DNA of 51,497 bases from Paenirhodobacter populi (GTDB lineage: Bacteria; Pseudomonadota; Alphaproteobacteria; Rhodobacterales; Rhodobacteraceae), in contig NZ_SAUZ01000007.1 in the NCBI RefSeq assembly GCF_004022215.1, positions 1 to 51,497 of the forward strand, in the 5' to 3' direction. How positions within the stretch are numbered: the stretch's first letter is position 1; every line of letters starts with the position of its first letter. A program made the translations under genes and the position numbers. The notes under the pieces were generated by a model, which saw nothing but the letters and a program-made list of their open reading frames with translations, was not told where the DNA came from and made no database searches. Of this stretch, positions 837 to 25,433 are shown in pieces.

Positions 837-977
837 TGTCACGGAATCATAACAGTGCGATCTCTGACAGTTCTCGAAACGAATCGGCGGCAAGTTACTG
901 AACATAATTGCTTATTATCGGACTCCACGAGCCCGGAAGCAATTGCGTGCACAGTGGAAGCATATCCGTGCAAATCC
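837..977. repeat. Transposon left end with TnsB-type binding repeats
   Basis: Starts TGTCA. Repeats of one type occur in the same orientation at 843-858 (GGAATCATAACAGTGC), 899-911 (a weaker TGAACATAATTGC), 935-950 (GGAAGCAATTGCGTGC) and 956-977 (GGAAGCATATCCGTGC plus AAATCC). They match the right-end repeats GAAGCATAACAGTGC and GGAAGCATAAGATTGCC. Spaced left-end sites and packed right-end sites are the usual Tn7 arrangement. Binding by the TnsB encoded here is inferred. Confidence 0.7.
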
Positions 978-997
978 GCACGGGCCACATTGGGCAT

Positions 998-1021
998 GAA
1001 AAAAAGCCCGCCAAAGCGGGC
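998..1021 (-). terminator. Rho-independent terminator after the toxin gene
   Basis: Perfect 6-bp stem GCCCGC/GCGGGC (1006-1011 and 1016-1021) with a 4-nt loop. On the minus strand a run of T follows, so it would end the transcript coming from the toxin-antitoxin pair and perhaps from the transposition operon upstream of it. Confidence 0.75.
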
Positions 1022-1113
1022 CTCATGGAACTGGGTTGTATGTAAAGCCCGGCGAGCAGCGCCGCCGTTAAGATGCGGCTTATCGCCGATGGTTCACCAC
1101 TGAGCCCAGATGG

Positions 1114-1389
1114 TCAGGGCCACATCTGGGCCGCATGCAAAACACGCAGGATCGAGATCAGATCGGGCGTTTCCCGATAGATCACAAGGTAATTCGGTCG
1201 AACAACCATCTCGCGCGTGCCAATCATCCGCCCTACCCGATAGGCCTGCGGTTGCTCCGGCAGATGGCCGACCTTGACCTCGATCTCTTCCAGTAAAGCC
1301 AGTGCGGCGGCCGGGTTGTCATCTGAGATGTATTCGAAAATGACCCGCAGATCCTCGCGCGCGGTCCAGCGCCATTCCAGTTCAGGCAC
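1114..1389 (-). CDS. ParE/RelE-family toxin
   Basis: A 91-residue protein of the usual ParE/RelE toxin length. The N-terminal WTxxAREDLRVIFEYI helix, the Arg-rich centre (YRVGRMIGTREMVV) and the closing strand YLVIYRE...ISILRVLHAAQ are typical of the fold. ParE members poison gyrase and RelE members cleave mRNA; the sequence alone does not say which applies here. Its start overlaps the end of the antitoxin gene by 8 bases, the normal antitoxin-first coupling. It probably stabilises the transposon in the host. Confidence 0.85.
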   Translation of the reverse strand: MPELEWRWTAREDLRVIFEYISDDNPAAALALLEEIEVKVGHLPEQPQAYRVGRMIGTREMVVRPNYLVIYRETPDLISILRVLHAAQMWP

Positions 1390-1675
1390 GGCGCTTTCGG
1401 TCGATCATTTCGCGCATCTCAGCCATGACCTCGGCATGGGGCACGGCCGGACGGTCATCATCCAGCGCTTCGCGCACTTTCGCCCGAAACCAGATATCAT
1501 ATGCGTCGGGATCCGCGGTCAGACCGGCCGGAAGGCCGCCTTCTCGGGCCACCCTGGTCAGTAGGATGCGCACCGCATCCGAGAGAGTCAGACCGACTCC
1601 CGCCAGGGCTTCACTCGCCTGAGCCTTGAGCGCGTCGTCCACGCGGACATGCAACATTGAAGTACGTGCAGGCAT
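1382..1675 (-). CDS. RelB/DinJ-type antitoxin
   Basis: From the ATG at 1675 this encodes 97 residues beginning MPARTSMLHVRVDD, a ribbon-helix-helix start typical of RelB/DinJ antitoxins, followed by LTLSDAVRILLTRVAREGGLP, the family signature helix. The acidic, less conserved C-terminal half would wrap the toxin. A longer frame up to 1744 lacks family similarity, so I chose the internal ATG. It forms an overlapping pair with the toxin at 1114-1389 and should repress its own promoter. Confidence 0.85.
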   Translation of the reverse strand: MPARTSMLHVRVDDALKAQASEALAGVGLTLSDAVRILLTRVAREGGLPAGLTADPDAYDIWFRAKVREALDDDRPAVPHAEVMAEMREMIDRKRRA

Positions 1676-1740
1676 TGAACAGCTCCAATCATTGAAATTA
1701 CCGTATCTCATTTGAGACCGTTCGGCAATCTGGGTGCATC

Positions 1741-1920
1741 TCATCGTGGCCAGTCGTGCTTCGAGGCGATCGCCGCGAAAACTTCATCCGCAGGAACGAT
1801 CTTGCCGTCGCGGGCAGCACTGACGCCAGCTCGTATACGGGCTGTCTGCCATTCATTGGTGTGGCCTGTGACATCTGCCGTGGTGATGGTGGCCGGCATA
1901 GACACCGGAAATGTCGGCAT
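1741..1920 (-). CDS. ParD-like antitoxin without a toxin of its own
   Basis: About 59 residues from the ATG at 1920 (an earlier ATG at 1950 is possible). The segment ARIRAGVSAARDGKIVPADEVFAAI matches the C-terminal half of ParD/CopG antitoxins, where Gly-Arg-(V/I)-Val-Pro-x-(D/E)-Glu-Val-Phe is common. No toxin frame follows directly; the next genes downstream form a complete pair. It may be an orphan that neutralises toxins from elsewhere, or a leftover of a lost module. Confidence 0.5.
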   Translation of the reverse strand: MPTFPVSMPATITTADVTGHTNEWQTARIRAGVSAARDGKIVPADEVFAAIASKHDWPR

Positions 1921-2020
1921 GTTACTTACTCCTCGTTGACATGTCGTCATCGTAGCTCATCCAGCCTGTTCTGGGTTTGCCAATCGCATCGTCGTGGCTG
2001 TGTTCTGGCCATCGGCAACC

Positions 2021-3001
2021 TCATCGTTGCGCTGCCGCCCGCTTGTTTTCCCAAAGCTCGAACATCTTTTCCCCCTTGAACAACGGCTCGAACTTCTCGA
2101 TCGAAAACGGCGAGTACCCCGGTGCGAGGGCAGTGCGGGCGGTGAACGCCCGGCAGAAGTGCTCTGATGTCAGAGCCATATCAGCGGAGTTTCGTGCCGC
2201 GACACAGGCGTCGATCAACGGTTCGATGGCCAGCCCCCACCGATTGCCGCAGGCGCAGGCGAGGCGGCGGAAGAAGTCGAGCGAGCTGAGACCCGAAAAA
2301 TCCACCCCTGCCTTGTCGGCATAGGCGAAGCACAGGCTGTTCAATTCTTGCTGATCCTCGGGGCGTTGCAAGCCTATTTCATGAAACTGGACCGGGCGCA
2401 GGAGGTAGGCCAGCTGCTCTTCGCTGGCGATATGCCCGACCAGTTCATCCACGCCCGAGAGCACCAGCATCAACGGCCAATCCGGATTCTTCAGCAGGGA
2501 TTTGAAGCTGTCGAGGATCATGGCCCGGCCCTCGACGCTTTTTCGGGGGAAGATGTGCTGGCACTCGTCGTAATGAATGCCATGCACGCCCTGAGCCCGA
2601 GCCTGAAACCCTACCATATCCCAGATTTCTGTTTGTGTCATCTTGCCCCGCGTCGGCAGATGAAGCCCCTCTCGCAGAGTGTGTACTCCAAGGTCTTTCC
2701 AAGTCATGGTGCCTGCGAGCATGACGCTGACGATTTTTGCCGGCCTGCCATCTGGCATGGCGGTTTCACCATCGTTGACCTTCGCAAGCAGATGCTCGAT
2801 TTCCGCCGACTTCCCTGTTCGTGAAGGCCCGGTTACCAAGAGGCCGCGCGCCTCGAACCGGCGGCCGAGTAAGGCCTTGGACCAATAGTCGGTCAGCATC
2901 CATTCGAACCCCTCGCGCAACTTTTGCGCGCGCGGGAAGGTGTAATGGGCGCCGCGCAGATCGGCAAAGGCCTGAGCGGTATTGGTGTTCACAAAGCTCA
3001 T
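2021..3001 (-). CDS. tnsC: TnsC/TniB-type AAA+ transposition ATPase
   Basis: A 326-residue ATPase of the TniB/TnsC family. The Walker A GPSRTGKS is at residues 58-65 and the Walker B IHYDEC at about 143-147. In Tn7-like elements this protein forms ATP-dependent filaments on target DNA and links the target selector (TniQ) to the TnsB transposase. The ATG at 3001 overlaps the tnsB stop as ATGA, which indicates translational coupling, so an earlier start in the same frame was rejected. It is the last gene of the tniQ-tnsA-tnsB-tnsC operon. Confidence 0.88.
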   Translation of the reverse strand: MSFVNTNTAQAFADLRGAHYTFPRAQKLREGFEWMLTDYWSKALLGRRFEARGLLVTGPSRTGKSAEIEHLLAKVNDGETAMPDGRPAKIVSVMLAGTMTWKDLGVHTLREGLHLPTRGKMTQTEIWDMVGFQARAQGVHGIHYDECQHIFPRKSVEGRAMILDSFKSLLKNPDWPLMLVLSGVDELVGHIASEEQLAYLLRPVQFHEIGLQRPEDQQELNSLCFAYADKAGVDFSGLSSLDFFRRLACACGNRWGLAIEPLIDACVAARNSADMALTSEHFCRAFTARTALAPGYSPFSIEKFEPLFKGEKMFELWENKRAAAQR

Positions 3002-5187
3002 GTCAGTTTGCCCGTGGTATTCGGGCGGCCGAAGGGCGCGGGTTGCGGCAGGTCTTCCGGCTCTGAGATTTGCCCATCGATTGGGGGCGAAAAACCTGCA
3101 CCGATGTCCCATGCCTCCGACATCTCACCAAGGTTGCCGATCATACCTGGGGCCAGCGTCCCTGCCATTGGCTCGGGCCGGTGCGCGTGCATCCCCGCCA
3201 TAAGGCGATTGGCCTTCGTTTGAGCCTCGTTGCGCGTCATGTAGCTGCGCGGGATATCGCGCTCGATGGCGTCTTTGCGCAGCATATCGAACCGTTCCGA
3301 GCGGATACGCGCCAGCCGCAGATCGATGTCCTTGGTGTCCAGAGGGTCTTCTGCGCGCAAGGTCTGAACGTGGGCAAGAAATTCCGGAAACGTCATGTCG
3401 CGCGCCCCGGTCCAGCTGAGGTCAGCCATGATCAGACCGGGGAAGCCTTGCACCACAACGGTCACTTCATTGGTGCTATCCGGGTCGATAAAAACTGCAA
3501 CTTTACGGTGAGCGCTATCGCGATGGCGCTGCAAGGCGGGCGAATTATAGGGCAACCCAAGCACCTTGATGCCCTCGTCGGTAATCGTCGCCTCAAAGCG
3601 CCATCCAAGATGCAATCGCCGATTTTGCGGGGAAACTGGTGGAGTGCCCCAGCCGTCCCTGGCCAGCCTTTCGGCAACATCCAAGGGGCGTTGGCCCATG
3701 AATGTTGTGCCATAATTGCGCTCCAAAGGGTATTCGTCGATCAGGTACTTTGTGATGATCGCATATAGCTCTGCACGGATATAGGCTGCGGATTTGATCG
3801 CGTCATAGCCTTCCAGGGCGCCTGCGCGGTTGCCGGTATAGCCATGGATCAGATTGAATAGGCGGGTCTCCATGCTGCCGAAGAAACGCTCGACATAAGG
3901 CTTGTCGCCACTGTGATAGGCGCGCACATCAACGATCTGGGCGGCCATGCCCAGCAAGGCTGTTTTGACCGCACCGTTGCGCAGGCCTACACCGTTGTCG
4001 TTGCGAACGCAGGCGATACCCACGGCGGGCATCGGATCAGACTCGCAGCCGTAGATAATTCTCTCTCTTTCTTTGCTGCGCGTCGCCATACGCAGCACTT
4101 CAAGCGTTGCCTCGGCATTTGGCGCATCCGCCAATACCCATCCCAGTGGCATACGCGTCGCGACATCAAGCGCCACAACCAGCCACAATCGTGTTTTCAC
4201 GAATGCGTCCAGTTTCTGTAGCGCGGTCTTTTCCTCGACAGAAAGGCGCTGCCACATTCCCACCCGGCGCGTGATCGTGATTAGAGAAATCTTGTTTTCG
4301 TCGATTTCGACCAGTTCGCCGACCGAAAGGGCATGTTCATCTGTGCGGCCCCGCGTGCGGGCGTTTACGGTTGCACGCTCGCCGCTTCGAGCAATAGCCA
4401 AAGCCGTGGCACCAATCGCCTGCATGTGATCCGAGACAGTTTTGCGCGAAACAGGCCGTAAGTCCTCAAGGCCATTCGCCGCGCGTTTAACATTTTCCAG
4501 CGTGATCAGGCTTTCATGACGCCGATGAACTACTGCCGCGTTCGGCTGCTTCAAGTCAAGCGCGACATCGTCGATGGCTTGGTCAATCAACTCTCGCACG
4601 CGAAACGAAATGCGGGAAGTGCGATTACCCCGCATCCACGTCTGGTCAACCAGCGCCATTTCATCATAGCCGGATTGAACAAATCGATCCCAATAAATGA
4701 ACAGCGTTCGCCCCTTTGGCATCGTGGCGACCAAACGGATTGACCCACCGCGCAGCGCTATGCCTATAGGGCGTGTCGTGTAATGCTGACGCGCAACGTC
4801 AAGGATTTTGCGGCGAGTCTCGAGCACATTCAGGTTGGATGCTCTGACAGGCTGGCCCTGTGCGGCGAGCGCCTCAACACCAAAGACCAGAGCTTTTCGG
4901 AAATCCAGCTCGTCGCGGTGCTGCGGTGAGAGTTGATCGCGGTGCATTAGCTTGCCACGTCTCAGCCTGGCAAGAGTTGCCGTCGCGTGGGCATGCCCAG
5001 CTGATTGCGACGCCCCCGGGTGGGTCGATTTCGTAAGATATTCTTGCAGCGTCCATATTTCTTGTCGACCTGTCTCGAGGCTTTCTGCGCGCACGGTGCC
5101 GCCAGGCGATGGATACAGGAGGTGGCTCAAACCATTTTTGGTCAACTGGGTTCCGGGCGCGATCATCGGACGAAATTCTAGCGTCAT
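2998..5187 (-). CDS. tnsB: TnsB-like DDE transposase
   Basis: A 729-residue retroviral-integrase-fold transposase. The likely triad is Asp296 (VEIDEN), Asp397 (RNDNG) and Glu433 (YVERFFG), giving DD(35)E spacing. A Mu-type C-terminal beta-barrel follows, and the first ~280 residues should bind the end repeats. It would bind the transposon ends, cut the 3' strands and join them to the target. It overlaps tnsA by 4 bases at its start and tnsC by 4 bases at its end, so the three genes are expressed together. The length and architecture fit the TnsB/TniA family. Confidence 0.9.
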   Translation of the reverse strand: MTLEFRPMIAPGTQLTKNGLSHLLYPSPGGTVRAESLETGRQEIWTLQEYLTKSTHPGASQSAGHAHATATLARLRRGKLMHRDQLSPQHRDELDFRKALVFGVEALAAQGQPVRASNLNVLETRRKILDVARQHYTTRPIGIALRGGSIRLVATMPKGRTLFIYWDRFVQSGYDEMALVDQTWMRGNRTSRISFRVRELIDQAIDDVALDLKQPNAAVVHRRHESLITLENVKRAANGLEDLRPVSRKTVSDHMQAIGATALAIARSGERATVNARTRGRTDEHALSVGELVEIDENKISLITITRRVGMWQRLSVEEKTALQKLDAFVKTRLWLVVALDVATRMPLGWVLADAPNAEATLEVLRMATRSKERERIIYGCESDPMPAVGIACVRNDNGVGLRNGAVKTALLGMAAQIVDVRAYHSGDKPYVERFFGSMETRLFNLIHGYTGNRAGALEGYDAIKSAAYIRAELYAIITKYLIDEYPLERNYGTTFMGQRPLDVAERLARDGWGTPPVSPQNRRLHLGWRFEATITDEGIKVLGLPYNSPALQRHRDSAHRKVAVFIDPDSTNEVTVVVQGFPGLIMADLSWTGARDMTFPEFLAHVQTLRAEDPLDTKDIDLRLARIRSERFDMLRKDAIERDIPRSYMTRNEAQTKANRLMAGMHAHRPEPMAGTLAPGMIGNLGEMSEAWDIGAGFSPPIDGQISEPEDLPQPAPFGRPNTTGKLT

Positions 5188-5942
5188 GCTTTAACCCTCC
5201 AAATCCGGGAGCGATCGCAGATGACGGCATCCATATCTGCTTGCAGCAAGCCACATGCGACCAGGCGCAGGCAGGCCCTGAAAATCCTTCCAGATGACAG
5301 GTCGATGGTACGGAACAGATCGCTGACGCGCCAAAGAGTGACGAGGTTGGTAGCCGCAGTCATCACGATCGTATCGGCTTCGGGATCAGGTTCGAAAGCC
5401 ACGGCCTGATGCATGCGGCGGAGGTTGTCTCTCCGCGCGCGGCTGTAGGCATCGGCATCAATAACCACGAATTTATGGGCTTCATGAGCCGGTGCCGCCC
5501 TCCATATAGCTCGGATTTCTTCTTTAACACTTGACTTGGTCAAACTCTCTGAGTTGCGCACGAACATCAGGCAGCGAAGCCCTGAGCGGAAGGTGATCCT
5601 CAGATCAATGGTGTGTAAGTGGGTGCTGCCGTCTGGCCGCTGATAGTAAAACTGAAGGGGCTGGAACTCTACATCATGGATGTCGGGATTGATCAAAGCC
5701 TCATGTGCCACGGCCAGTTCCGCCAGGCTTTCAGCCAGACCGACTTTCGGCTGCCAATTGTTCGCCCCAGTTCTGTATTTAAACGTAACTTTCTGACTGA
5801 CACTGCTGGTAGTCAGCGGATTTCTTACACCCGTAAAGGGCAACACCCCAGGGATCGGGCGTAGCTCGATCTTACCCGCTGATTTAAGCTTGGGCTGACC
5901 ATAGGCCCATTCGTCGTGATCGACAATATATTGACTATGCAT
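5184..5942 (-). CDS. tnsA: TnsA-like endonuclease, active site altered
   Basis: A 252-residue protein between tniQ and tnsB. Position and the pattern Glu75 (SLAELA) ... Asp113 (HTIDLR) ... hydrophobic strand identify it as TnsA-like; TnsA cuts the 5' strands so that Tn7 moves by cut-and-paste. The usual Gln/Glu-x-Lys after the second strand reads Phe127-Val-Arg129 here, so one metal-ligand position is hydrophobic and the lysine is arginine. It may be a divergent or weakened nuclease. If inactive, the element would form cointegrates. The family call rests on context plus a partial motif. Confidence 0.7.
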   Translation of the reverse strand: MHSQYIVDHDEWAYGQPKLKSAGKIELRPIPGVLPFTGVRNPLTTSSVSQKVTFKYRTGANNWQPKVGLAESLAELAVAHEALINPDIHDVEFQPLQFYYQRPDGSTHLHTIDLRITFRSGLRCLMFVRNSESLTKSSVKEEIRAIWRAAPAHEAHKFVVIDADAYSRARRDNLRRMHQAVAFEPDPEADTIVMTAATNLVTLWRVSDLFRTIDLSSGRIFRACLRLVACGLLQADMDAVICDRSRIWRVKA

Positions 5943-5998
5943 GACTTATACCTCCGCAACTCGGCAGAACCGATTGCTTTCTATATTCTAAGGGATGT

Positions 5999-7942
5999 TC
6001 AGTTCGGGAACAGGCTGTGAAGCCGCGCCTCATCGACAAGAAGGAGCCGCGCTAAACGCTCTCCACCCGGAAAGTAAGCGATGCGCTCGATGTCGGTGCG
6101 CCGGAAGATTTTTCGGCTATCTCCAGCCAACGGCAAAGGCGCGATACCATGCGCGACGATATAACGCTGTGTCTCTTCGAAGTTTGCCCTTCTGGTGCCG
6201 CTCAACGCGCGAAGAACGATGTATTCATTCGCAAAAACCTCAATATCAGCGTGCCGAAACAAACGAACCGCGCGGTTTGCAAGGCGAAAATCTACCATGA
6301 CCCCGGGCAAGAATCCGCCCTTGGCAAGAGCATGAATGGTGCCCGGCTTTACGCCCATCAGCTTGGCCGCCGAAGCCGCTGTCATAAATTCGGCAGGAAA
6401 TTCGGACAGGCGCAGATGAATAGCGACTAAGTTCACATAAAAGTCCGGCAACCTGAACGGCGCATCAATCGGTGAGGTAAGGCGGAATTCACCGGAAAGT
6501 GCGCGTGTAAGTAATGCGGCAATCGTGCAGTGGCACCGCGCTGCTGCTTCGGGCAGTGGCACATGGTCCGAGTTTGGCGTGATGCAACAATCGGTGGCAG
6601 CCTGAAGACGCCGCACGAAACGAACTATTTCGTCCTCATGAAAAACTGGCATACCCTCATCATCAATCAGGAAGTGCGGGTTTATTACTCGATCTGCGCA
6701 GAGACGCTCCATCGTATATCGATCCGCGCCGATCGTGCTGCGCGTAACAGCGAAAGAAGTAAACTTTCGAACCTCTGCGACTGCGGTGTCCATGATTCCG
6801 CGAGGAATGAGCGTGGCGCGATCGCTGATCGTATTGCTAGAAGTTTTTCCTTGTATTGCGCCAACCAAGCTGAGTTGCCGATTCAGTAGGGAAATCGGAA
6901 CATCAGATTCTTTTGCCGCAATGCCGATCGTTACTACCCGTGAGGTATGGGATACTTCCCCCAAAACGGAAGTCCCGTCGGGAACATGGAAATTATTGAG
7001 GATGAATTCGCGTACCAGGCGGCGGAGTTCGTCGAAAGCTTCATCTTTGCGCCGCTCGCGAAGACAGGCTAACAATGGAGTGTAAAGCTTACCGTAGTCC
7101 GCCTGATCGGCACCCGCCCTCGCCTGAAGTTCCTTGAGGCAGGATGTAATTCTGGCCGGTCCATCACGGAAGACTTGGAAGCCAGCAGCACCAGCTTCAA
7201 TCAGGTTTTGTGCCGAAAGAGCATGAGCACGGGCATTCGAGCCGAACTGCATGAGCGTCCCAAGGGCTTCGCAAAAGAGTGCAACTACATGAAATTCGAA
7301 GCGGTCTGCCCAGTCTTCACATCGGCCCTTTGCAATCCGGTCAAGCAGATGGGCTTCGAGCATTTGTGCGTTTTTGGGTATGGATGTCGGCGGGGACGGT
7401 CTCCAGGCGCGTAGGTGCGGGATGATGTCGTGGGCTTCTCGGGTTGTGCAACCAAGCCTGTTGCGCTCAAGCACGACGCGATGCCGATGACAGCTGCGAA
7501 TGGAGCCGACCTGCCAAATTCCTCGCTGAAAGAGGCCGGCATCGCCATCGACGGCCCTGTCCTCCAGCAGGCAAACAGGACAGATTTGGCCGCCTATCCG
7601 TTGGAACACCGAAAATTTGATCCGCTCTCGCCCAAGCACAAACCAACCCGGCTCGGTCAAGCAGGGCGTATTGAATAGGAGCCGTTCAGGATCGGCAGCC
7701 GTGAGCCGCGCAACGCTTCGGACTTCATCCTCGCGACCGTTGGCGAGTTCCCGGAACAAAATCTGCTGGTCGGCGCATGCATCCTGAAGGCGGTCATACC
7801 CGTTTGCCCGCGCGGCTCTGCCCAGCAATGAAGCGGCGGTTTCGCCGTGACCCGCCAGGACCGGGATGGGAAAGGAACGCCTTGAAGGCGCGACGAAGCC
7901 TCCCGCCGCTTCACGCGGCCAGGTGAGAACTTTGACTGTCAT
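5999..7942 (-). CDS. tniQ: TniQ/TnsD-type target-selection protein
   Basis: A 647-residue TniQ-domain protein. The N-terminal region (about 20-160) has the zinc-binding pairs CPVC (121-124) and CHRH (151-154). A long C-terminal part follows, with a helix-turn-helix-like segment AASAAKLMGVKPGTIHALAKGGFL near residues 525-550. Short TniQ proteins lack such an extension; long ones (TnsD type) read a fixed chromosomal site. This fits the insertion next to tRNA-Ala, so it probably recognises sequence in that tRNA gene (inference). First gene of the operon, 56 bp before tnsA. Confidence 0.85.
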   Translation of the reverse strand: MTVKVLTWPREAAGGFVAPSRRSFPIPVLAGHGETAASLLGRAARANGYDRLQDACADQQILFRELANGREDEVRSVARLTAADPERLLFNTPCLTEPGWFVLGRERIKFSVFQRIGGQICPVCLLEDRAVDGDAGLFQRGIWQVGSIRSCHRHRVVLERNRLGCTTREAHDIIPHLRAWRPSPPTSIPKNAQMLEAHLLDRIAKGRCEDWADRFEFHVVALFCEALGTLMQFGSNARAHALSAQNLIEAGAAGFQVFRDGPARITSCLKELQARAGADQADYGKLYTPLLACLRERRKDEAFDELRRLVREFILNNFHVPDGTSVLGEVSHTSRVVTIGIAAKESDVPISLLNRQLSLVGAIQGKTSSNTISDRATLIPRGIMDTAVAEVRKFTSFAVTRSTIGADRYTMERLCADRVINPHFLIDDEGMPVFHEDEIVRFVRRLQAATDCCITPNSDHVPLPEAAARCHCTIAALLTRALSGEFRLTSPIDAPFRLPDFYVNLVAIHLRLSEFPAEFMTAASAAKLMGVKPGTIHALAKGGFLPGVMVDFRLANRAVRLFRHADIEVFANEYIVLRALSGTRRANFEETQRYIVAHGIAPLPLAGDSRKIFRRTDIERIAYFPGGERLARLLLVDEARLHSLFPN

Positions 7943-10152: not shown

Positions 10153-10155
10153 TTC

Positions 10156-15707: not shown

Positions 15708-18700
15708 TACTCTTGCTCCTCGTAAACCCCGACTCCCGAAAGTCCAGACTTGGCAAATATCGCATTATGCTCGCGAATATCTGCAAAGAAGCCGTACTCA
15801 ATTCCGACATCGGCCTGCTCGATAGCAGTGTCGATCTTCAGCACTACATCTTGGCACCCGGGCAGAAAGAAGTTCCCAATCCTACCCTTGTTATCTTTGA
15901 ACACATACTGAGCACGAAGGGCGATAAGTAGCTCTGCTCCCAGACTGGAGATCAACGCTCGGTCTCTTGCCGAAAACATCCTTGTCGAAACAGGAAACGC
16001 ATCAAGCAACCATTTCTTGAGATTGAACCCATCAGAGGCAACCGACCACCACCAGTACCCCATCGAACTGCACAGGAGTGCGAAAACCAAATTGGCCTCG
16101 TCTTCGGTCGCAAATCGATAGCCTGCCGTTCTCGCCGGTAGCGACGGACGTCCATCGACATCTGTCGTCTCTGGGATTTCTCTCCAAGCTGGAAACCAGT
16201 TGTATGCAGTTCCTCCAACATAGACAGCATTCCGTGGAAATCTTGGCGCCATCCTCGCCAAGGCAGCGAACGGAATTGTATCCCTCAGGTCCAGTCCAAG
16301 CGGTAGGTTTCGTTTAAGCAAAGCATCAACTGTTCTAGATTGGATATTCGAGCTTAGCTTCAATATGCGCGGTCCAATTTCAGATGGAACACCCGAATAG
16401 GTAAGCCTCGCAAAGAGCGTGTCCCTGGCATCCGCGCTCCAACGGAACAAGGCAGTCGACAGGGTATTCTTCTTCTGTGAAGAATCTCTAGAAATTACAA
16501 CTATCGTACAACGTGTCCGGACCTCATTTCCGAACAGAGCGCTTGGTATCCGATCAAAATGAGAATAGGCGGACAGTGTGCCTTCTGTTTCTAGGACTTC
16601 GCGCAACTTAGTGTAGGGACGTTTCGTCGAAAACGCCAATGAGAGCGGCAAGATCATTCCAAACTGGCCTGACTCTGCCCTTAGCAGTCGCAGACTGCGT
16701 TCGACAACCAGCGTATACAGGTCCTCATCTCTACTCCACTTCTCAAGCGCAGTCTTGAAGACTGAACGCAGGAGATGGCGATTTGTGTGTTTCGGTATCT
16801 CTGCATAGGGCGGGTTGCCGACGATCACATCAAAACCACCCGCATCCATGATTCCGAAGAACTCAATGAACCAGTGGAACGGACGATGGGATTTCGCCCA
16901 AGCATCCATCGCGCTCAAATCATTCAGCTTTACACCACAAGACTTGGCAAGCTGATTATTCAATCGCTGCTCAAGCACACCCAAGCGCTTTTTCAGCTCT
17001 TCCTTGTCCGCCCCAGGTACTGAGCCATCGCCCATAATTTGCCGTCGCCGGAACTCATTAAATGCCTGCTGTAGGTCAGCCGCCTTCGGTCTTATCTGCT
17101 CAAGCTCTTGCTGCCTGATCCAGTCGCCCTCTGCGCTCTTTTCAACCTCCGCCCAAGTGGCATAGCCGACGAGCGTGTTGCCTGCCTTGATGTTGAAGTC
17201 GATATCCGGCAGCGGCTCGATCCCAAGGTTCGCGGCCCGCATATCGGGCTCTACCTGCGCCGCCAGCTTCAGGAACAGGCGGAGTTTGCAGATCTCCACC
17301 GCCTCTTCCATGATATCGACGCCGAAAAGGTTGTTCAGGATGATGCTTTTCAGGATGAAGTAACGGGCGTTGGGATGCGCATCGATGCGCGCAAGCACTT
17401 CGCGGAACCCTTTGGGGTTGTCTTCTTCCTTGCCGCTTGCGCGCTGCCGGTCGGCCACAAAGGCCTCCATCCGGTCAAAGCAGGCGGCATAAAGCGGTTC
17501 CAGGATGTTCAGCGCGGCAAACAGGAAGGCACCCGACCCGCAGGTAGGGTCAAGCACGGTGAGGTTCTCGATGGCCTTCCAGAAGGCGCGAAGAAGATCA
17601 GGCCCCTCACACCGTTCGATCACATCCTGGACAAACTGGCGGATATCGAGGTTCAGGGTGATCAGATCATTGATCTCTCGCACCTCGCCGTTCGCCAGTT
17701 TGGCGCGCACCTCGGCATAGCGGGTGCGACGGGCAACAACCTCGCGCCAAATCTCGGTGGGGAGGGAGAAGTCAGCGGGCGCGCTGCGGTTCCAGTCGCC
17801 GCGCTGGGCAACGTCTGCGATCCCCGCGGCTATGTTTGCGGGGAGGTCGTGCGGCGAATCTAGCGGTGCCCCACGGCCTTCGTCGGCATGGATATCCCAG
17901 CTGATGCCATGTTTCACCGCTGGGTAGATATAACGGTCAGGATCATCGCGCAGATGGTCCCAGACCGTCGGGCCGCCGGGGTTCTCAAAGGCGACGTTGC
18001 ACTTGGCTTTGGCCGCATTGAACAGAAAGGGGATCACCGTGTTTTTCGAGATGTACTCGGTGATATCCCCCTTGGTGTAGTAGGCTCCCATCTGCTTTTG
18101 GTTGATGTACTTTTCGAAGATGTACCCGAGGACGTCTGGGTTGATCTCGTTCTCGTTCCGCAGCGGCCGCTCGTCGAGGTGCCAAGTGTAGCGGTCGAAA
18201 TAAGCGAAGATGCGCTCGAACGCGGCATCGGGGATCTGGATGTCGGGGCAGCGGTCTTCGATTGGGTGCTTTTCAAAGAGACCACCGTTCAGGTAGGGAA
18301 TCTTGCCGAGCAACCTAACCAGTTCGGGATCATGTGGGCGACTGCCGAGGCCCTCATGGAACAGGCGGATCAGGAAGTAGCGGTAGAAGGAATAGAAGGC
18401 GTCCTTGCCCTTTTCCGCCTGGCACTTGGCCAAACGGGTCCGGAGGTAGTCGGACTCGCCGTTCAGAAAGCCCTTCTTCTGCATGAAGTAGATAAACATC
18501 AAGCGGTTCAGCATCAGGGATGCGTACCACTCCTTGTCAGCAACGTCCTCGATGCCCGAAATGAACCCGAGGAAAGCCTTATGCTCCTTAGTGAACTGGT
18601 CGAAGAAGCGCTTGGTCACGCGTTCGACGTCGAGGGCACTGCGCAGGCGATTGGTGACGTCTATCAGACCGAGGCCACCTTCCTCGGTAAAGGTGAAGGT

Positions 18701-19105
18701 AATGGCTTCAAGCTTCTGAAGGAATGCCCGGTTGGCGCTACCTACACGCCAGAAATGCTCGAGCACGGCCACAGGCTTGCCCGGCTCTCGTCGCGCCCAA
18801 CACCAAATCTGCTCCCTCTTGGCGCTGTCGGTAAAGATGATCAGATGCTCGAGTGTTGTCTTGGCCACCTGGCGCTCGATCTTCTTCCGAACCTCACGGT
18901 CCGGGAGAAGGGCGCCGGGAGCGGAATCCATGCGCCAGACGACGACACCTCTTTTCTGGGCGCAGGCATTGAGAGCGAAGCTATCCCCCTCGACGTCCAC
19001 CGTGAGCGACGCGGCATGGTTGTCCCAGCCCATTTCATCGATGAATAGTCGCTGGAAATCAAAGGCGTCCAGTAGGACACGCGCCCGTTCGACCTTAAGT
19101 TTCAT
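15704..19105 (-). CDS. Eco57I-like N6-adenine DNA methyltransferase
   Basis: 1133 residues. The SAM-binding motif DPTCGSGAF is at 519-527 and the catalytic NPPY at 763-766, in the order of gamma-class adenine methyltransferases. Segment 340-350 (GAYYTKGDITEYI) is the usual entry to such domains. The C-terminal third probably contains the target-recognition domain. The first ~330 residues are of the kind found in large type IIG/Eco57I enzymes, but I cannot point to a clear nuclease motif. It starts 12 bp after the helicase-PLD gene, which may provide cleavage. It would methylate host sites so they are spared. Confidence 0.85.
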   Translation of the reverse strand: MKLKVERARVLLDAFDFQRLFIDEMGWDNHAASLTVDVEGDSFALNACAQKRGVVVWRMDSAPGALLPDREVRKKIERQVAKTTLEHLIIFTDSAKREQIWCWARREPGKPVAVLEHFWRVGSANRAFLQKLEAITFTFTEEGGLGLIDVTNRLRSALDVERVTKRFFDQFTKEHKAFLGFISGIEDVADKEWYASLMLNRLMFIYFMQKKGFLNGESDYLRTRLAKCQAEKGKDAFYSFYRYFLIRLFHEGLGSRPHDPELVRLLGKIPYLNGGLFEKHPIEDRCPDIQIPDAAFERIFAYFDRYTWHLDERPLRNENEINPDVLGYIFEKYINQKQMGAYYTKGDITEYISKNTVIPFLFNAAKAKCNVAFENPGGPTVWDHLRDDPDRYIYPAVKHGISWDIHADEGRGAPLDSPHDLPANIAAGIADVAQRGDWNRSAPADFSLPTEIWREVVARRTRYAEVRAKLANGEVREINDLITLNLDIRQFVQDVIERCEGPDLLRAFWKAIENLTVLDPTCGSGAFLFAALNILEPLYAACFDRMEAFVADRQRASGKEEDNPKGFREVLARIDAHPNARYFILKSIILNNLFGVDIMEEAVEICKLRLFLKLAAQVEPDMRAANLGIEPLPDIDFNIKAGNTLVGYATWAEVEKSAEGDWIRQQELEQIRPKAADLQQAFNEFRRRQIMGDGSVPGADKEELKKRLGVLEQRLNNQLAKSCGVKLNDLSAMDAWAKSHRPFHWFIEFFGIMDAGGFDVIVGNPPYAEIPKHTNRHLLRSVFKTALEKWSRDEDLYTLVVERSLRLLRAESGQFGMILPLSLAFSTKRPYTKLREVLETEGTLSAYSHFDRIPSALFGNEVRTRCTIVVISRDSSQKKNTLSTALFRWSADARDTLFARLTYSGVPSEIGPRILKLSSNIQSRTVDALLKRNLPLGLDLRDTIPFAALARMAPRFPRNAVYVGGTAYNWFPAWREIPETTDVDGRPSLPARTAGYRFATEDEANLVFALLCSSMGYWWWSVASDGFNLKKWLLDAFPVSTRMFSARDRALISSLGAELLIALRAQYVFKDNKGRIGNFFLPGCQDVVLKIDTAIEQADVGIEYGFFADIREHNAIFAKSGLSGVGVYEEQEY

Positions 19106-19117
19106 GATCGTGCACCC

Positions 19118-22100
19118 TCAATTCGTCCCACTAGCTAAGCCGAGCGAACAGATGATCTGCGGCTCGTCCTGCTGCTGCTCATCTTGTACTATGCAAAGCC
19201 GGTCTTCCTCTCGCAGCGCCAGCACAAGATCGGCCAGTTTTTCGTCAGAAATCCCTAGTTTGAGCTGCCGGTTCAGTGTGTCTGTTGCCGCCTGGCGCAA
19301 CGGGAACCTATAGATCTCTTCGACCGCCCTAGAAAGTTCCGGCGTATCAAAGAGCTCTCCTTTTACCTTTGCGGCATAGTCCTTGAGACGCTCATACGTA
19401 CGGAATCGTGCTCCTGTCGGCCGCCCCAGCTGACCTCCGACCTTCTTCTCTTCAGCAGCGATGTGTGAGACAGCCTTGCCCACGATAGCATGGTGATGAT
19501 CCTGCCGCGGAAGTGCCATCGTGCCAGGCTCACAAGCCGCAGCCCGCAGAATTTCAAACTGCGACTGGGTAACCGCATCCCCAACGTGGTCCACCCACGT
19601 CAGTGCATCGTTGCCTTGTGCTGTTCGCATGTAGACCAAAGCGCCACCGGGCCGATTTGGCGATGGAGCATAAGCCTTGGTCGCATAAATCACGTCCGGC
19701 AAAGACGGAACAAGTCTCGCCAGCACAGGATTACTCTCGGTCGCGTTCCGCCATATCTGATAGGCATAAGAAGCAAGATCAACCTCAGTGTCTGCGTCTC
19801 CGTCTAGGATGCCCGACTTCTCGCTGTAGAGATCAATCAACGCCCCTGAGTCCCCTTCGTCCTCAAAGAAACTCTCATCTGTTCCGACAACTTCAGCATT
19901 TTCACGAAGCCGTTGAGAGACCCGTGCACGAAGATTGATAAGCCGCTCTACGCCATCCGCGGGAAGGAACGAATAGCAGCGGATTTCAGCCGCCTTCTGG
20001 CCAATTCGGTCAACTCGGCCAGCACGCTGGATGAGACGAATAATGGCCCAAGGAAGGTCAAAGTTCACCAAGATGGAACAGTCCTGAAGGTTTTGCCCTT
20101 CGCTCAGAACATCAGTGGCGATCAAGATCCGCAGCTCGTCCTGCTCCTTCACTTGAGCCCGCTTACCGTTCGAAACAGGGCTAAAGCGCCAAGCGTAGCT
20201 TGTTGGGTCCTCAGTTTCTCCCGTTACGCCAGCAACTGCCTCAAACCCCTTCTTTTTCATCTGGCGCTCAAGATAACGCACAGTGTCTGCGAACTGGGAG
20301 AAGATCATGACTTTTTCTGTCGGGTGCGTCGTTTTCAGAAGGGATAGCAGGGCTTCCAACTTTCTGTCTTGCGACGCTTTCCAGGGACCGCAGTCATTAA
20401 GTATTTTCATCAACGTCGCGCTATCCTCGAGGAGATGCGATCGCAAATCTGAAACGAAGAGGCCTGGGCGCAGCCACTTAAAGCGCTTCTTGAAGCGCCC
20501 AGAGTACAGTTCATACGCATTAGCAGCCCTTCGCTGAAACGACGGGATATCCCTCAGATTAAGGGCCTGTGCTGCCTGGAAGAGGTCATCTTCGCCCTCA
20601 GCCACTATCTCAGCATCGGCGCTCTGGTCATCGATGTCTTCATCATAATTTGCGGTGTCCAAAAGGCCCGCATCCTGCGTCCCGAGCGGCAGGGGGAGGT
20701 CATTTTCGATAGCGTGTAGGAAAACATAATTCCTAAGGACATGCCGCTCCAAAGACTGTTGAAATGCTTCACCACTACTTTCAAGGCGCTTAAACAGGTT
20801 CGTACGACAGAAACCCATGAGACGCTTCCCCGCGCGAGACAGATCATCCAGCTGACGAGCCTCCGGCGTTGTGGGAGGGCTATCCGGAGCAGGAGCGACA
20901 TAATTCCCAAGGCCATATCTCGGCAAATGCATCTCATTTATCGCATCCACAACCGAGGATGCATATAAACCAGCATACTGATCTGTCGCGTCCTCATCAC
21001 TGATCTTAAACTTGACCGTGCGTGGACGCCGTTCCGGAAAATAGGAGCGCGCCCCATCCTCAAAAGTCAGATATCGCCGACCATTCTCCGGGTCTGTGGA
21101 GGCGTAGTTTTCTTGAATGAAGGTGCGGGTTCTGCGAACCATATACAGGCGCATGAGTTCACGCCAGTCGTCTGGGAACTCGCTCTTCTCGAAAGCCGCC
21201 AGTGATCGAACCGAACATTGATGTCGACGGATGAACTCGGTCTCGCCTATGCCGGATAGCAACCGTTCGGGGCGGATTCCTAGGTCATGATCCTCCGGCA
21301 CAAAGAGTCGAAGTTGGCTAGAAAGGTCGATGTAGGCCTTGTTGTATGGTGTAGCCGACAGGAGAATGCAGCGGCTCTCGTTTTCGGCAAGATACTCCCG
21401 AATCGCCTTATAGCGTTGCCCCTCTCGGTTTCTGAGGTTGTGGCTTTCGTCAATTAGGACCAACCGGAACCGTCGCAAATTAGGAAGCTCACGAACTGCA
21501 CGTGTTACCGATAAGACCTTTGCGATTAAGCGATATTCTTCAACATAACCCTCCCACATCTTCACCAAGTTCTTTGGGCAGATGATGAGAGTTTCAGTGG
21601 AGTGATCATCCTGAAAAATTTTCGCCACCGCTGTGGCCATAAGTGTCTTTCCAAGACCAACGACATCCCCGATCAGAACACCACCTCTTTTCTGAAGATG
21701 ATGCGCAGATATTTTCACAGCGGCTTCTTGATACGGAAAAAGCTTCTTGCCAAACTCCCTCGGTATCCGAAACTCACTTAGCCCTGAACGCGCCTCTTGG
21801 GCTAGGTGATATGCCATTTTTACATAAATCAAGTACGGATCAACTAGATCGTCTCTAGCCCAACTCTCTTCGATGACTTCAATCAGGTCGGAAGTGATAT
21901 CAATACACCACCGGTCTTCCCAACGATCGTCGAACCAGTTAGTCAGCTTCTTTGTTGCGTCATGATCTAGAACATCAACATTAAGCTCGCCTTGCTTTGA
22001 AAGCCCGGATAGCGTCAAGTTGCTGCTTCCCAAGAACCCAGTAATCGGATTGTTCGGATCAGAACGAAACATCAAGTAGAGCTTGGCATGAAGGGTATGC

Positions 22101-22525
22101 CGAAGAAAAAGCCTTACGACCACTTTTCCAGATCGTAGCTGTTCGGCCAGGCGCCGCAGCCCTGCTTCATCCTCGTTGCTTGGCATTCCGAGCGTTAGTT
22201 GCGCACGGAACTCCTCCGCAAGTTTGCGCTTCAGACGAATAGCGGTTTGATTATCTAGTGCCGGTTCTTCGTTCCCGACCCCCAAAGCAGAGCGTAGCTC
22301 ATCTTCAGGCAAACGCTGCATGCCGACGAGAAGTCGACAACAAGAGCCTTCGCCACCAGGCCAAAGTGCAATCAGATCATCTATGGCCTTCCATCCGCGC
22401 AGATTAAAATATCCGACGCAGAAATCACTTCGATTGGATACCCTCAGTGTGTCACGCAGGGCGGGCAACAGCCCACTTTCAATATTGTCAAAAACTCTAG
22501 GCACCCACGGTCCCCCTTCCGGCAT
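19118..22525 (-). CDS. PLD-nuclease/SNF2-helicase fusion, candidate restriction effector
   Basis: 1135 residues. An N-terminal phospholipase-D-type nuclease motif occurs at 146-169 (HAKLY ... GSSNLT; one HxK copy, so it should act as a dimer). The SNF2 helicase core follows: GLGKT (290-294), DESH (359-362), LLSATPY (388-394), and near 880-905 the C-terminal TDVLSEGQNLQ and QRAGRVDRIGQ. Such proteins move along DNA with ATP. It is the first gene of the three-gene operon with an Eco57I-type methyltransferase, recalling the helicase/methylase/PLD parts of DISARM, but no drmA or drmB is present. Confidence 0.85.
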   Translation of the reverse strand: MPEGGPWVPRVFDNIESGLLPALRDTLRVSNRSDFCVGYFNLRGWKAIDDLIALWPGGEGSCCRLLVGMQRLPEDELRSALGVGNEEPALDNQTAIRLKRKLAEEFRAQLTLGMPSNEDEAGLRRLAEQLRSGKVVVRLFLRHTLHAKLYLMFRSDPNNPITGFLGSSNLTLSGLSKQGELNVDVLDHDATKKLTNWFDDRWEDRWCIDITSDLIEVIEESWARDDLVDPYLIYVKMAYHLAQEARSGLSEFRIPREFGKKLFPYQEAAVKISAHHLQKRGGVLIGDVVGLGKTLMATAVAKIFQDDHSTETLIICPKNLVKMWEGYVEEYRLIAKVLSVTRAVRELPNLRRFRLVLIDESHNLRNREGQRYKAIREYLAENESRCILLSATPYNKAYIDLSSQLRLFVPEDHDLGIRPERLLSGIGETEFIRRHQCSVRSLAAFEKSEFPDDWRELMRLYMVRRTRTFIQENYASTDPENGRRYLTFEDGARSYFPERRPRTVKFKISDEDATDQYAGLYASSVVDAINEMHLPRYGLGNYVAPAPDSPPTTPEARQLDDLSRAGKRLMGFCRTNLFKRLESSGEAFQQSLERHVLRNYVFLHAIENDLPLPLGTQDAGLLDTANYDEDIDDQSADAEIVAEGEDDLFQAAQALNLRDIPSFQRRAANAYELYSGRFKKRFKWLRPGLFVSDLRSHLLEDSATLMKILNDCGPWKASQDRKLEALLSLLKTTHPTEKVMIFSQFADTVRYLERQMKKKGFEAVAGVTGETEDPTSYAWRFSPVSNGKRAQVKEQDELRILIATDVLSEGQNLQDCSILVNFDLPWAIIRLIQRAGRVDRIGQKAAEIRCYSFLPADGVERLINLRARVSQRLRENAEVVGTDESFFEDEGDSGALIDLYSEKSGILDGDADTEVDLASYAYQIWRNATESNPVLARLVPSLPDVIYATKAYAPSPNRPGGALVYMRTAQGNDALTWVDHVGDAVTQSQFEILRAAACEPGTMALPRQDHHHAIVGKAVSHIAAEEKKVGGQLGRPTGARFRTYERLKDYAAKVKGELFDTPELSRAVEEIYRFPLRQAATDTLNRQLKLGISDEKLADLVLALREEDRLCIVQDEQQQDEPQIICSLGLASGTN

Positions 22526-22540
22526 TCTGCGGCATTGATG

Positions 22541-23431: not shown

Positions 23432-23668
23432 AGAAACCTCCTGTCTGATGAAGGGGAAAGTCCCCAATCGTCAGACAGAAATGCACGCAGCCAAATGCAC
23501 GCGGCTCATATCATCGCTGAACCCTCACCAAGGGCGCCAATGCCGCGGAGCGGCTTCGTCCATGGGCCGAGGCTGGAAGGGGGCAGAGGTGCGTTCCGGC
23601 CAGTAGCTCGACGCTTCGAGACAGAAGGAGACGACCAGGTCCAGCGCATGGCTTGATCCTAATCAAGA

Positions 23669-24226
23669 TCATGCTTGATTTCGTGCAGCTTGATCTCGCA
23701 TCATAATAGCCATCCATACATCCATGATCCTTCCGCGTTCGTGGCGAACCTTATCCCGCCATTCATCGATTTCTGCAGCCGTATGCGCGTATCTCTTGTT
23801 GGCTTCACGCGATGCAATATGACCTAACGGATCCAGCGTGGAAGAAAGAAAATTGCCTCTCTTCACAATGAGACCGTCAATGGTCTCGTTGATCTCGGAG
23901 ACGTGCCCGTGAGCAATCTCGTTCCTTGTTGGAGCGAGTTTGTCTATCTTCTTCATTGCGTCGGTCACTATAGAGGTTTCCTCTGGCGTCGCACGAGAGG
24001 CATGGTGCCTTAGTGCGGACTTTATCATCATTGCCCGTGATTGCCGCGGGGCAACCCGAAAAGTCTCGGCTGCCACCGGTTCCTTCGCTCCGCAAAGCTG
24101 CGTAAAAAGCATTTCAAGTATGTCCTCGGATGCCTCCCACCATGAAAGAGCAATACCCACAGACAGGTAGACCTCATGTGCAGTTGGAGAGCCCTCGCGG
24201 GTAGGTGGCACGACATTCTGGCTCAT
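23669..24226 (-). CDS. HEPN-motif protein (putative)
   Basis: 185 residues, mostly helical. The segment LAPTRNEIAHGHV carries R-N-x3-H, the RxxxxH pattern with a polar residue after Arg that marks HEPN ribonucleases, which often act in toxin or anti-phage systems. The flanking helices (ALSWWEASEDILEMLFTQL before, AEIDEWRDKVRHERGRIMDVW after) fit the four-helix layout. No partner nucleotidyltransferase is seen. The assignment rests on the motif and fold expectation. Confidence 0.5.
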   Translation of the reverse strand: MSQNVVPPTREGSPTAHEVYLSVGIALSWWEASEDILEMLFTQLCGAKEPVAAETFRVAPRQSRAMMIKSALRHHASRATPEETSIVTDAMKKIDKLAPTRNEIAHGHVSEINETIDGLIVKRGNFLSSTLDPLGHIASREANKRYAHTAAEIDEWRDKVRHERGRIMDVWMAIMMRDQAARNQA

Positions 24227-24455
24227 TTCAATAACCTTTCAACGTAGAAACTTCCGTAAAACGGACTGATGTTTCATCCCGCATCAGAGACATTGCCCGG
24301 TTAGAATTGCTGCGGCAAGCATGACTGACCGCTCTGGGGAGGCCGCCCTGTAGCGCTCGACGGTAGTCGACCGGCGGTTAAGGGCCGAGCGCGTAGCGCT
24401 AAGGCTTGGCGGCTCATACGCCCATGCTGCTGCGCCGCGTGACCGGTTCGATCCC

Positions 24456-25118
24456 TCACTTCATGAACAGGATCCCCCTGGCTGACTTTTCGCACAGGAT
24501 TTTGCATCTAATCATTCGCCCGATCGCAAGACGTTTCGGATACCATCGCCCATCATAAAAGACCTCAATGTGTTTGCTGGGCATCGTGACGATCGCAGTT
24601 AGCCTGCCTTCACGCGACTTGGCTTCGCCAATGTTGGCGGGGCGGAGGTCGAACATCGACGATGGATATTCGTGAATGAGTGGGAGATCGGGCCGGAAGG
24701 TTCGTCCTTCAAACCCTGCCAAGCTGATCCGCGTCATGAGCCGCATGGGGCGGTCGAGTACACCTGCCCGACCCTTTAGTGCGAGGACAACGCTGTCGAG
24801 AGGCGACGCCCCAAGAGCGTTCGCTGTCGGTTCATTCGATTGAAAGGCGATGGCATCTTCGACATCGGTGAGGAACCAAAGGCCGCACCACGACTGCCCT
24901 ATCTGCAGCTGAGGGATGTGAGCGTGGTCTTCGATTCGGTCGATCTGTGCAAAAATGCGATACGGTCGATCCTCCAGAAAATATTGTTCGAAGATTTCCC
25001 AGACCGATTCCAAACGATAGACATACCTGCCACCGAGGGCATCGATATGACCAATTTTGTCTGGGGACACGATGGAGACTCCAACCGACCGCTGCGAACT
25101 AAAAGACGTCGGTGACAC
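24456..25118 (-). CDS. Unrecognised cargo protein
   Basis: 220 residues with normal composition, no signal peptide and no membrane segment. Features include an early GRYVYRLESVWEIFEQYF and a central basic stretch; no known motif is visible. It lies between the HEPN-motif gene and the transposon right end, a usual place for defence cargo, but nothing in the sequence fixes a function. The 24227-24455 gap before the HEPN gene shows no gene. Confidence 0.5.
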   Translation of the reverse strand: MSPTSFSSQRSVGVSIVSPDKIGHIDALGGRYVYRLESVWEIFEQYFLEDRPYRIFAQIDRIEDHAHIPQLQIGQSWCGLWFLTDVEDAIAFQSNEPTANALGASPLDSVVLALKGRAGVLDRPMRLMTRISLAGFEGRTFRPDLPLIHEYPSSMFDLRPANIGEAKSREGRLTAIVTMPSKHIEVFYDGRWYPKRLAIGRMIRCKILCEKSARGILFMK

Positions 25119-25274
25119 CGTAACTAAAACAGACCTTCACGTACATCTCAGTGTAAGTCCGTTCCGTCCTCACTTCAGACCGTAGCGCCTCGGAAAATGC
25201 TGCACGATGCCACGGATGACCGGTTCGAGTGGGCCGCACCGCAGCGAGCCCGAACCTGGCGAAGGTCTGGATAG

Positions 25275-25433
25275 GGCCGAACATGTCAGACGCACCCTGC
25301 CGAGCCGCATGACTGCCGCACGCACTTTCGGCGGGAAAGATCTACTTTGCGGGAGTTCTGTGCGCCAAGAAACATATTGACAGCAGTTCGGCAATCTTAT
25401 GCTTCCGATTTGCACTGTTATGCTTCGCTGACA
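25275..25433. repeat. Transposon right end with TnsB-type repeats
   Basis: Read inward from 25433 it starts TGTCAGCG. It has two repeats: 25405-25426 (GAAGCATAACAGTGC plus AAATCGG) and 25390-25406 (GGAAGCATAAGATTGCC), about 21 bp apart. It is nearly identical to 667-825. It borders the tRNA-Ala gene at a distance of 10 bp. Confidence 0.8.

What the first reader, a model, noticed from the sequence alone, without database searches (positions are those of the whole stretch)
837..25433. A 24.6-kb Tn7-like transposon defined by its own ends, next to tRNA-Ala(CGC)
Seen: inward TGTCA at 837 and (reverse) 25433, the shared CATAACAGTGC at the same offset, further GGAAGCATAA-type repeats in both ends, and tniQ-tnsA-tnsB-tnsC inside. 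The right end stops 10 bp past the 3' end of an intact tRNA gene. Known: Tn7 relatives insert just downstream of a conserved gene read by TnsD/TniQ. Inference: this one uses tRNA-Ala, which keeps the tRNA functional and gives a site present in nearly every host.
Basis: partly seen in the sequence, partly recalled or inferred. Interest (0 to 1): 0.85.

Follow-up and report, generated by a model that had tools for sequence, protein, structure and literature searches.

The report
Tn7-like transposon stacked beside a tRNA
A 24.6-kb relative of the bacterial transposon Tn7 sits just behind an intact alanine tRNA gene, which its target-choosing protein most likely recognises, and it is parked against the end of an older sister element, so the same safe spot seems to be used repeatedly.

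Summary
Ends, genes and tRNA are as reported: left end 837, right end 25433, intact tRNA-Ala(CGC) 25444-25519, tniQ-tnsA-tnsB-tnsC. So this is one element of a tandem set, and the proposed empty-site test cannot be run on this contig.

Relatives support tRNA-Ala targeting through TniQ. Of 15 genomes with a related TniQ, 13 have the matching right end 8-10 nt past the CCA of tRNA-Ala(GGC), one past tRNA-Pro(CGG); the closest sister is unresolved. Of 9 with both flanks visible, 5 have identical 5-bp duplications, a sixth nearly so, 3 do not. Left-end|5 bp|right-end junctions recur; one species has four right ends flanked by the same 5 bp.

TniQ and TnsC trees conflict strongly: the window combines one lineage's TnsABC with another's tRNA-Ala TniQ. 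tRNA-homing Tn7-like elements are known; tRNA-Ala, the short offset and this swap were not found in the papers searched. New variant of a known kind.

The parts
1..673 (.). IS1182-family transposase fragment; the contig begins inside it and it abuts the second right end
   Evidence: 122-670 is 80.4% identical to an IS1182 transposase of Paracoccus aminophilus; window = whole contig C67
667..825 (-). second right end (RE2) of an older element, terminus at 825
   Evidence: 97% to 25275-25433; 155 of 160 identical
826..836 (.). junction between RE2 and the left end: GCTGACACTAA = 7-bp repeat of the RE terminus plus CTAA flank
837..1000 (+). left end (LE): TGTCA terminus and GAAGCATA-type repeats
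1114..1744 (-). ParE-like toxin (1114-1389) and RelB-like antitoxin (1382-1744)
2021..3112 (-). tnsC (AAA ATPase, TniB family)
2998..5187 (-). tnsB (DDE transposase)
5184..5942 (-). tnsA (endonuclease-like)
5999..7942 (-). tniQ/tnsD-like target selector, 647 aa
13586..14389 (+). IS transposase (rve) in the cargo
15704..19105 (-). type IIG restriction-modification enzyme (cargo, defence)
   Evidence: (PDLC03628, 1.4e-279)
19118..22525 (-). PLD + SNF2-type helicase (cargo, defence-like)
25275..25433 (-). right end (RE1), terminus at 25433
25434..25443 (.). 10-bp spacer between right end and tRNA 3' end
25444..25519 (-). tRNA-Ala(CGC), intact: presumed attachment site

Best explanation
A Tn7-like transposon of the TnsA-TnsB-TnsC-TniQ kind, 24,597 bp (837-25433), inserted about 10 bp behind the 3' end of tRNA-Ala(CGC). 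Inferred mechanism: TniQ (a TniQ core followed by a string of MerR/BldC-like helix-turn-helix modules) binds the tRNA gene, recruits TnsC, and TnsC brings TnsA/TnsB holding the two ends; insertion is oriented, right end towards the tRNA, with a 5-bp duplication, leaving the tRNA whole. Because the tRNA is untouched the site can be used again: a later element enters between the tRNA and the older one, giving tandem sets in which left end, about 5 bp and the next right end follow each other. The window shows the youngest such element against the right end of an older one. Its selector was exchanged between transposase lineages, and the tRNA-Ala site went with the selector. Shown: ends, genes, fixed offset, tandem junction, relatives at tRNA-Ala, conflicting trees. 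Inferred: TniQ binds the tRNA gene; order of insertions; activity today.
For: Ends and tRNA. Operon. Same genus: right-end-like DNA at the same tRNA, 11-14 nt past CCA, in G006, G009, G013, G015, i.e. 4 of 17 other genomes by BLAST extent. Relatives of TniQ: 16 loci in 15 genomes; right end 8-10 nt past tRNA-Ala(GGC) CCA in 13 of 15 and 9 nt past tRNA-Pro(CGG) in one; tniQ and tRNA on one contig in 5 of those 13. Whole-genome scan of the right-end sequence in the 15 genomes (up to 3 mismatches): 22 places, reversed control 0; 11 at tRNA-Ala(GGC), 10 at left-end/right-end tandem junctions, 1 elsewhere. Both flanks visible in 9 genomes: same 5 bp in G312, G313, G315, G320, G323, and in G319 with two spare bases. 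Tandem: Rhodovulum kholense has four right ends each preceded by GCTTT on contigs C9 and C26. Trees: window + Pelagimonas TniQ with the tRNA-Ala(GGC) group, 100/100; their TnsC elsewhere; holding either the other way is rejected (p-AU 5e-72 and 2e-76). TniQ model pLDDT 78, top PDB matches are TniQ structures.
Against: The window's own 5-bp duplication is imperfect (CTAA only), and 3 of 9 relatives also fail it (G317, G318, G325). The closest sister, with the same operon (Pelagimonas, G143/G311), has no tRNA on its 38-kb contig and no RE there; in four relatives that hold the flanking gene no tRNA lies in the 20 kb fetched around it, so for the exact operon type tRNA-Ala rests on the window alone. 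In 8 of the 13 relatives tniQ and the tRNA are on different contigs; four of these are tied by the same 5 bp, four only by end sequence. One right end lies at no tRNA-Ala (G317:C1:1808041). Same-genus genomes G009, G013, G015 have right-end-like DNA but no TnsB. The second element beyond RE2 is unseen. The groups in the AU tests were named after the trees were seen.
Confidence: 0.82

Rival explanations
1. The target is set by TnsABC or by a general tRNA-hotspot effect, not by TniQ; the element's place beside tRNA-Ala is incidental.
For: tRNA genes collect many kinds of islands (general knowledge). A TnsB-TnsC element of the window's own genus without a visible TniQ (G014) lies 13 nt behind what reads by eye as the 3' half of a tRNA.
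Against: The offset is fixed to a few bases in 13 genomes; right ends occur at tRNA-Ala or at tandem junctions in 21 of 22 places. Site follows the TniQ tree, not the TnsC tree. G589, whose TnsC is in the window's 12-row clade but whose TniQ is not in the tRNA-Ala clade, has no tRNA in the 40 kb fetched, though its ultimate target is not known.
Confidence: 0.1
2. The second right end (667-825) is not a remnant of an older element but a product of a faulty event of the same element (one-ended insertion, recombination or duplication).
For: RE1 and RE2 are 155/160 identical; nothing of a second element is visible beyond it, only IS1182; no further left end was found in the genome with up to 1 mismatch apart from a single weak C1 match.
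Against: The same LE|about 5 bp|RE junction occurs 10 times in the 15 relative genomes, and between two such junctions on Rhodovulum kholense C26 lies a complete element with its own TniQ; similar junctions in three TnsABC relatives, G421, G589 and G330, of nine tested.
Confidence: 0.2
3. An integrase-type island inserted into the tRNA 3' end, with Tn7-like genes as passengers.
For: tRNA 3' ends are classical integrase sites; an integrase-domain fragment lies at 22541-23467.
Against: No copy of the tRNA 3' end at the left border: the own-genome search with 25380-26100 matched only the locus itself, RE2 and another tRNA. The tRNA lies 10 bp outside the element; the integrase ORF is a truncated chimera.
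Confidence: 0.03

Closest known systems
Type I-D and I-B2 CRISPR-associated Tn7-like transposons with a tRNA-homing TnsD (PMC10293859, PMC11406308: passages seen)
   Same: TnsA/TnsB/TnsC machinery and a large TniQ-family protein that homes behind a tRNA gene; orientation-specific insertion outside the tRNA
   Different: Those carry Cascade and a second small TniQ, have fused TnsAB, use tRNA-Leu or tRNA-Val, and the I-D element inserts about 30-33 nt behind the tRNA; here no cas genes were seen, TnsA and TnsB are separate, the site is tRNA-Ala and the offset 8-14 nt
Tn7 (TnsABC+D at glmS)
   Same: TnsA, TnsB, TnsC and a TnsD/TniQ selector, 5-bp duplication, insertion behind a conserved gene
   Different: glmS site, TnsE present, tnsABCDE order (partly recalled); here tniQ leads the operon and no tnsE was seen
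Rhodobacterales tnsB-tnsC-tniQ elements at tRNA-Ala(GGC) (found here)
   Same: Related TniQ (28-31% identity), same tRNA amino acid, same geometry, tandem junctions
   Different: Different TnsB/TnsC lineage (25-28% identity), different ends (TGAAAAG...), no TnsA match, GGC isoacceptor
Tn5053/Tn402-type TniABQ transposons
   Same: TnsB/TnsC/TniQ core
   Different: They lack TnsA and use a resolvase (PMC11406308 passages); here a TnsA is present

Membership tests
Tn7-like transposons | DDE transposase TnsB | tested here: met
   (solved TnsB chains, 8.9e-19)
Tn7-like transposons | AAA regulator TnsC | tested here: met
   (TniB, AAA_22)
Tn7-like transposons | TniQ/TnsD selector | tested here: met
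   PF06527; TniQ structures rank first
Tn7-like transposons | TnsA endonuclease (in most) | tested here: met
   fold match to Tn7 TnsA, E 2.7e-5, from a low-confidence model; no sequence-level hit; activity not testable: the presumed catalytic Lys is Arg in 24 of 25 aligned relatives (column equivalence judged by eye from recalled Tn7 residues)
Tn7-like transposons | ends with several TnsB sites and TGT..ACA termini | tested here: met
   binding itself not tested
Tn7-like transposons | 5-bp target duplication | tested here: inconclusive
   window: CTAA shared, fifth base differs; in 9 relatives 5 exact, 1 exact with two spare bases, 3 not
Tn7-like transposons | fixed insertion behind a conserved gene | tested here: met
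CRISPR-associated transposon (CAST) | cas genes and a CRISPR array in the element | tested here: not met
   no Cas among the proteins scanned (not every ORF); no array-like repeat family among repeats of 25 nt or more in 1-27000; no dedicated CRISPR finder was run
tRNA-integrated island of a tyrosine integrase | tRNA 3'-end repeat at the far border and an intact integrase | tested here: not met

The most novel reading that the evidence does not exclude
These elements do not exclude their own kind from a filled site: they queue. Each newcomer enters between the tRNA and the last arrival, so a tRNA-Ala gene feeds a growing, oriented array whose order records the order of arrival, even when the ends are nearly identical (97% in the window; identical first 24 bases at three of the four right ends in Rhodovulum kholense). 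That would mean target immunity, the rule that keeps Tn7 away from DNA that already holds Tn7 ends, is absent, very short-ranged or overridden by the TniQ-tRNA complex, while TniQ modules are traded among transposase lineages to gain entry to the queue.
Probability: 0.3. Interest if true: 0.7.

Novelty: new variant of a known kind. Interest (0 to 1): 0.5.

Why it matters
It gives a natural series in which nearly the same ends appear at tRNA-Ala and at tRNA-Pro, and in which one TniQ clade serves two unrelated transposase lineages: a ready set for asking which part of TniQ reads a tRNA gene, and for re-aiming protein-guided insertion without CRISPR. tRNA genes are present in every cell and stay intact, so they are good safe sites. 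The tandem junctions with near-identical ends question how target immunity works outside Tn7.

Tried and rejected

Blind search for end pairs in 25 stretches: ranked the window pair first by one base and gave nothing clear elsewhere; five stretches had no TnsC, and the script stopped with an error at G427, so G014 and G001 were not reached.

Site of the closest sister (Pelagimonas): looked for a tRNA in relatives holding its flanking gene; 5 of 41 genomes matched including itself, none of the four others had a tRNA in 20 kb. Left unresolved.

Other TnsABC relatives' targets: nine were tested; both right end and tandem junction found for G589, tandem junction for G421 and G330, a right end behind a tRNA-like 3' half for G014; the rest gave no second end in the DNA held.

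TnsA sequence search in PDB: no hit. TnsA fold was poor. CAST, integrase island and chance adjacency were considered and rejected as given under rivals and membership.

Rows dropped: tree inputs excluded TniQ hits under 350 aa and TnsC hits under 180 aa, so the interrupted G286 TniQ is not in the trees. The TniQ structure alignment used the window and 12 of the 16 loci.

Literature: seven papers searches bear on novelty. No paper held all of Tn7, tRNA-Ala and TniQ (ranking puts more terms first). One search listed only 10 of 101, so Tn7-like with tRNA-Pro in an unlisted paper is not excluded. Only passages of PMC10293859, PMC11406308 and PMC8649781 were seen; the rest as listings. That Tn7-like elements can share one attachment site in tandem is recalled from the Tn7 literature, not from a call.
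Full report
What is there. The reported ends are real: TGTCA at 837 and its inverse at 25433, with the shared CATAACAGTGC at the same offset. The 22-base pattern has three exact matches in the genome, all on this contig, plus one match with a mismatch elsewhere; the reversed control has none in this genome. tRNA-Ala(CGC) is intact at 25444-25519, so the right end stops 10 bp behind it. On the minus strand lie tniQ (5999-7942), tnsA (5184-5942), tnsB (2998-5187) and tnsC (2021-3112). TnsA is recognised only by fold, and from a weak model.

The third exact match, 804-825, is the terminus of a second right end: 667-825 is 97% identical to 25275-25433, 155 of 160 bases in the stretch compared. It points the same way as the first right end and lies 11 bp outside the left end. 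Left of it is a piece of an IS1182-type transposase, in which the contig ends. The left flank is therefore another element's end, not host DNA. The junction reads left end, TTAG, TGTCAGC, then TGTCAGCG of RE2. The tRNA side of RE1 reads TTTAG. Four bases agree; a perfect 5-bp duplication is not there.

The site in the genus. All 18 genomes searched have the tRNA. Four besides the window (G006, G009, G013, G015) have DNA like the right end at the same tRNA, 78-84% identical over 50-67 bases, starting 11-14 nt past CCA. G009, G013 and G015 have no TnsB at E 1e-5, so these are probably decayed or non-autonomous copies; their contigs break close to the end or inside the element, so this is not proved.

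The site in the TniQ clade. TniQ was found in 45 of 295 family genomes at E 1e-10, most at 21-30% identity. One scan of genome contigs with an alignment of four TniQs gave 16 loci in 15 genomes. In 13 of the 15, the tRNA-Ala(GGC) gene is followed, 8-10 nt past CCA, by a common right end (TGAAAAGCACCAGATAGTTCTGCC or a variant). In five of these (G315, G317, G318, G319, G322) tniQ is on the same contig, 9-16 kb away, transcribed away from the tRNA as in the window. In Paracoccus alkanivorans (G321) a like end follows tRNA-Pro(CGG) by 9 nt, on the tniQ contig, while its tRNA-Ala(GGC) has none; its TniQ branches within the group. Pelagimonas (G311 = G143), the only other genome seen with a clade TniQ in the tniQ-tnsA-tnsB-tnsC order, is unresolved: left end found, right end off the contig, no tRNA nearby.

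A scan of the 15 genomes for the right end found 22 places, none with the reversed control: 11 at tRNA-Ala(GGC), 10 directly after a left end, 1 elsewhere (G317:C1:1808041). Where the tRNA-side flank and the left-end flank are both visible (9 genomes) the 5 bases agree in G312 CTTCA, G313 CTCTT, G315 GCTTT, G320 CCCTT and G323 CCCTC; in G319 TCCTT agrees but two more bases follow; G317, G318 and G325 differ. Rhodovulum kholense (G315) has four right ends, on C9 and C26, each preceded by GCTTT, with three clade TniQ genes. That the two contigs form one array is inferred.

Two histories. In the TniQ tree (50 rows) the window and Pelagimonas are sisters of the 16 TniQs of the tRNA-Ala/tRNA-Pro group, in an 18-row clade at 100/100. 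In the TnsC tree (51 rows) the same two fall with G187 (99/95) in a 21-row group of TnsABC elements, on the other side of a 100/99 branch from the TnsC of the tRNA-Ala(GGC) group. Holding the window and Pelagimonas with the GGC group in the TnsC tree is rejected (p-AU 4.95e-72); holding their TniQ with the TniQs found near TnsABC genes is rejected (2.43e-76). The groups were chosen after seeing the trees, but the likelihood gaps (154 and 354) are large. The direction of the exchange is not known. The TnsA family is common: 61 of 390 order genomes.

How it probably works. The TniQ model (pLDDT 78, pTM 0.58) has a TniQ core that matches TniQ structures (E 1.6e-5 for the best) and, further on, stretches that match small MerR/BldC-like DNA-binding folds with high Foldseek probability but poor E-values. 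I infer that this string of modules reads the tRNA gene, as TnsD reads glmS, and that TnsC and TnsAB follow. The fixed offset, the orientation and the site following the TniQ tree support this; no binding was tested. Insertion outside the tRNA leaves the site usable, which explains the tandem junctions. In the TnsABC relatives, clear tandem junctions were seen in G421, G589 and G330 of nine examined, so stacking is not limited to tRNA-Ala elements.

Compared with what is known. PMC10293859 (passages seen) reports a type I-D element whose TnsD inserts about 30-33 nt behind tRNA-Leu and relates it to I-B2 sites; PMC11406308 (passages) says tRNA genes were repeatedly acquired as att sites through TnsD/TniQ and stresses selector exchange; PMC8649781 (passages) mentions integration downstream of tRNAs. 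So the kind is known. tRNA-Ala as a TniQ site was not found in the searches made (with the limits stated), and the shorter offset and this exchange in Rhodobacterales look new. I rate it a new variant, of moderate interest, with the queueing and immunity question as its boldest part.

Noticed in passing
window 15135-22525: Cargo looks like an anti-phage set: a type IIG restriction-modification enzyme (PADLOC 1.4e-279), a PLD+SNF2 helicase and a small protein without a family.
   Followed up: partly
window 1114-1744: ParE-like toxin and RelB-like antitoxin directly inside the left end, which could help keep the element.
   Followed up: no
window 22541-23467: An ORF that joins the first part of a tyrosine integrase to part of an IS transposase; looks like a broken chimera.
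   Followed up: no
window 9048-9119 and 14493-14564: 72-nt direct repeat, 92% identical, on either side of the IS-bearing middle of the cargo.
   Followed up: no
window 5184-5942: At the presumed catalytic Lys of TnsA this family has Arg in 24 of 25 aligned members (Lys in G278); whether it cuts is open.
   Followed up: partly
L088:14980-15038 (G014:C1): A tnsB-tnsC element of the window's genus, no TniQ seen, starts 13 nt behind what reads like the 3' half of a tRNA (tRNA-Arg(CCT) by eye; ARAGORN found none and Rfam scored below threshold), hinting that a tRNA 3' half is enough as a target.
   Followed up: partly
L122 (G313) and L132 (G323): Weak right-end-like sequence also behind tRNA-Ala(CGC) in two genomes whose elements sit at tRNA-Ala(GGC) (by eye).
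   Followed up: no
L253 (G317:C1:1808041): A right end with one mismatch that follows neither tRNA-Ala nor a left end; a tRNA-Gln lies about 0.85 kb upstream.
   Followed up: partly
L015-L029 set, G016:C5:138427: A 34-bp exact copy of the tRNA-Ala(CGC) 3' region 5.8 kb from the tRNA, typical of an integrase island at the same tRNA.
   Followed up: no
L080 (G000:C29), L081 (G000:C4): Two further Tn7-like elements with other TniQ types in the same genome.
   Followed up: no
L100 (JAFKDC010000053.1): Record titled Enemella evansiae (an actinobacterium) carries this Rhodobacterales-type element, and its genome is grouped in the window's family (G019); the name is probably wrong.
   Followed up: no
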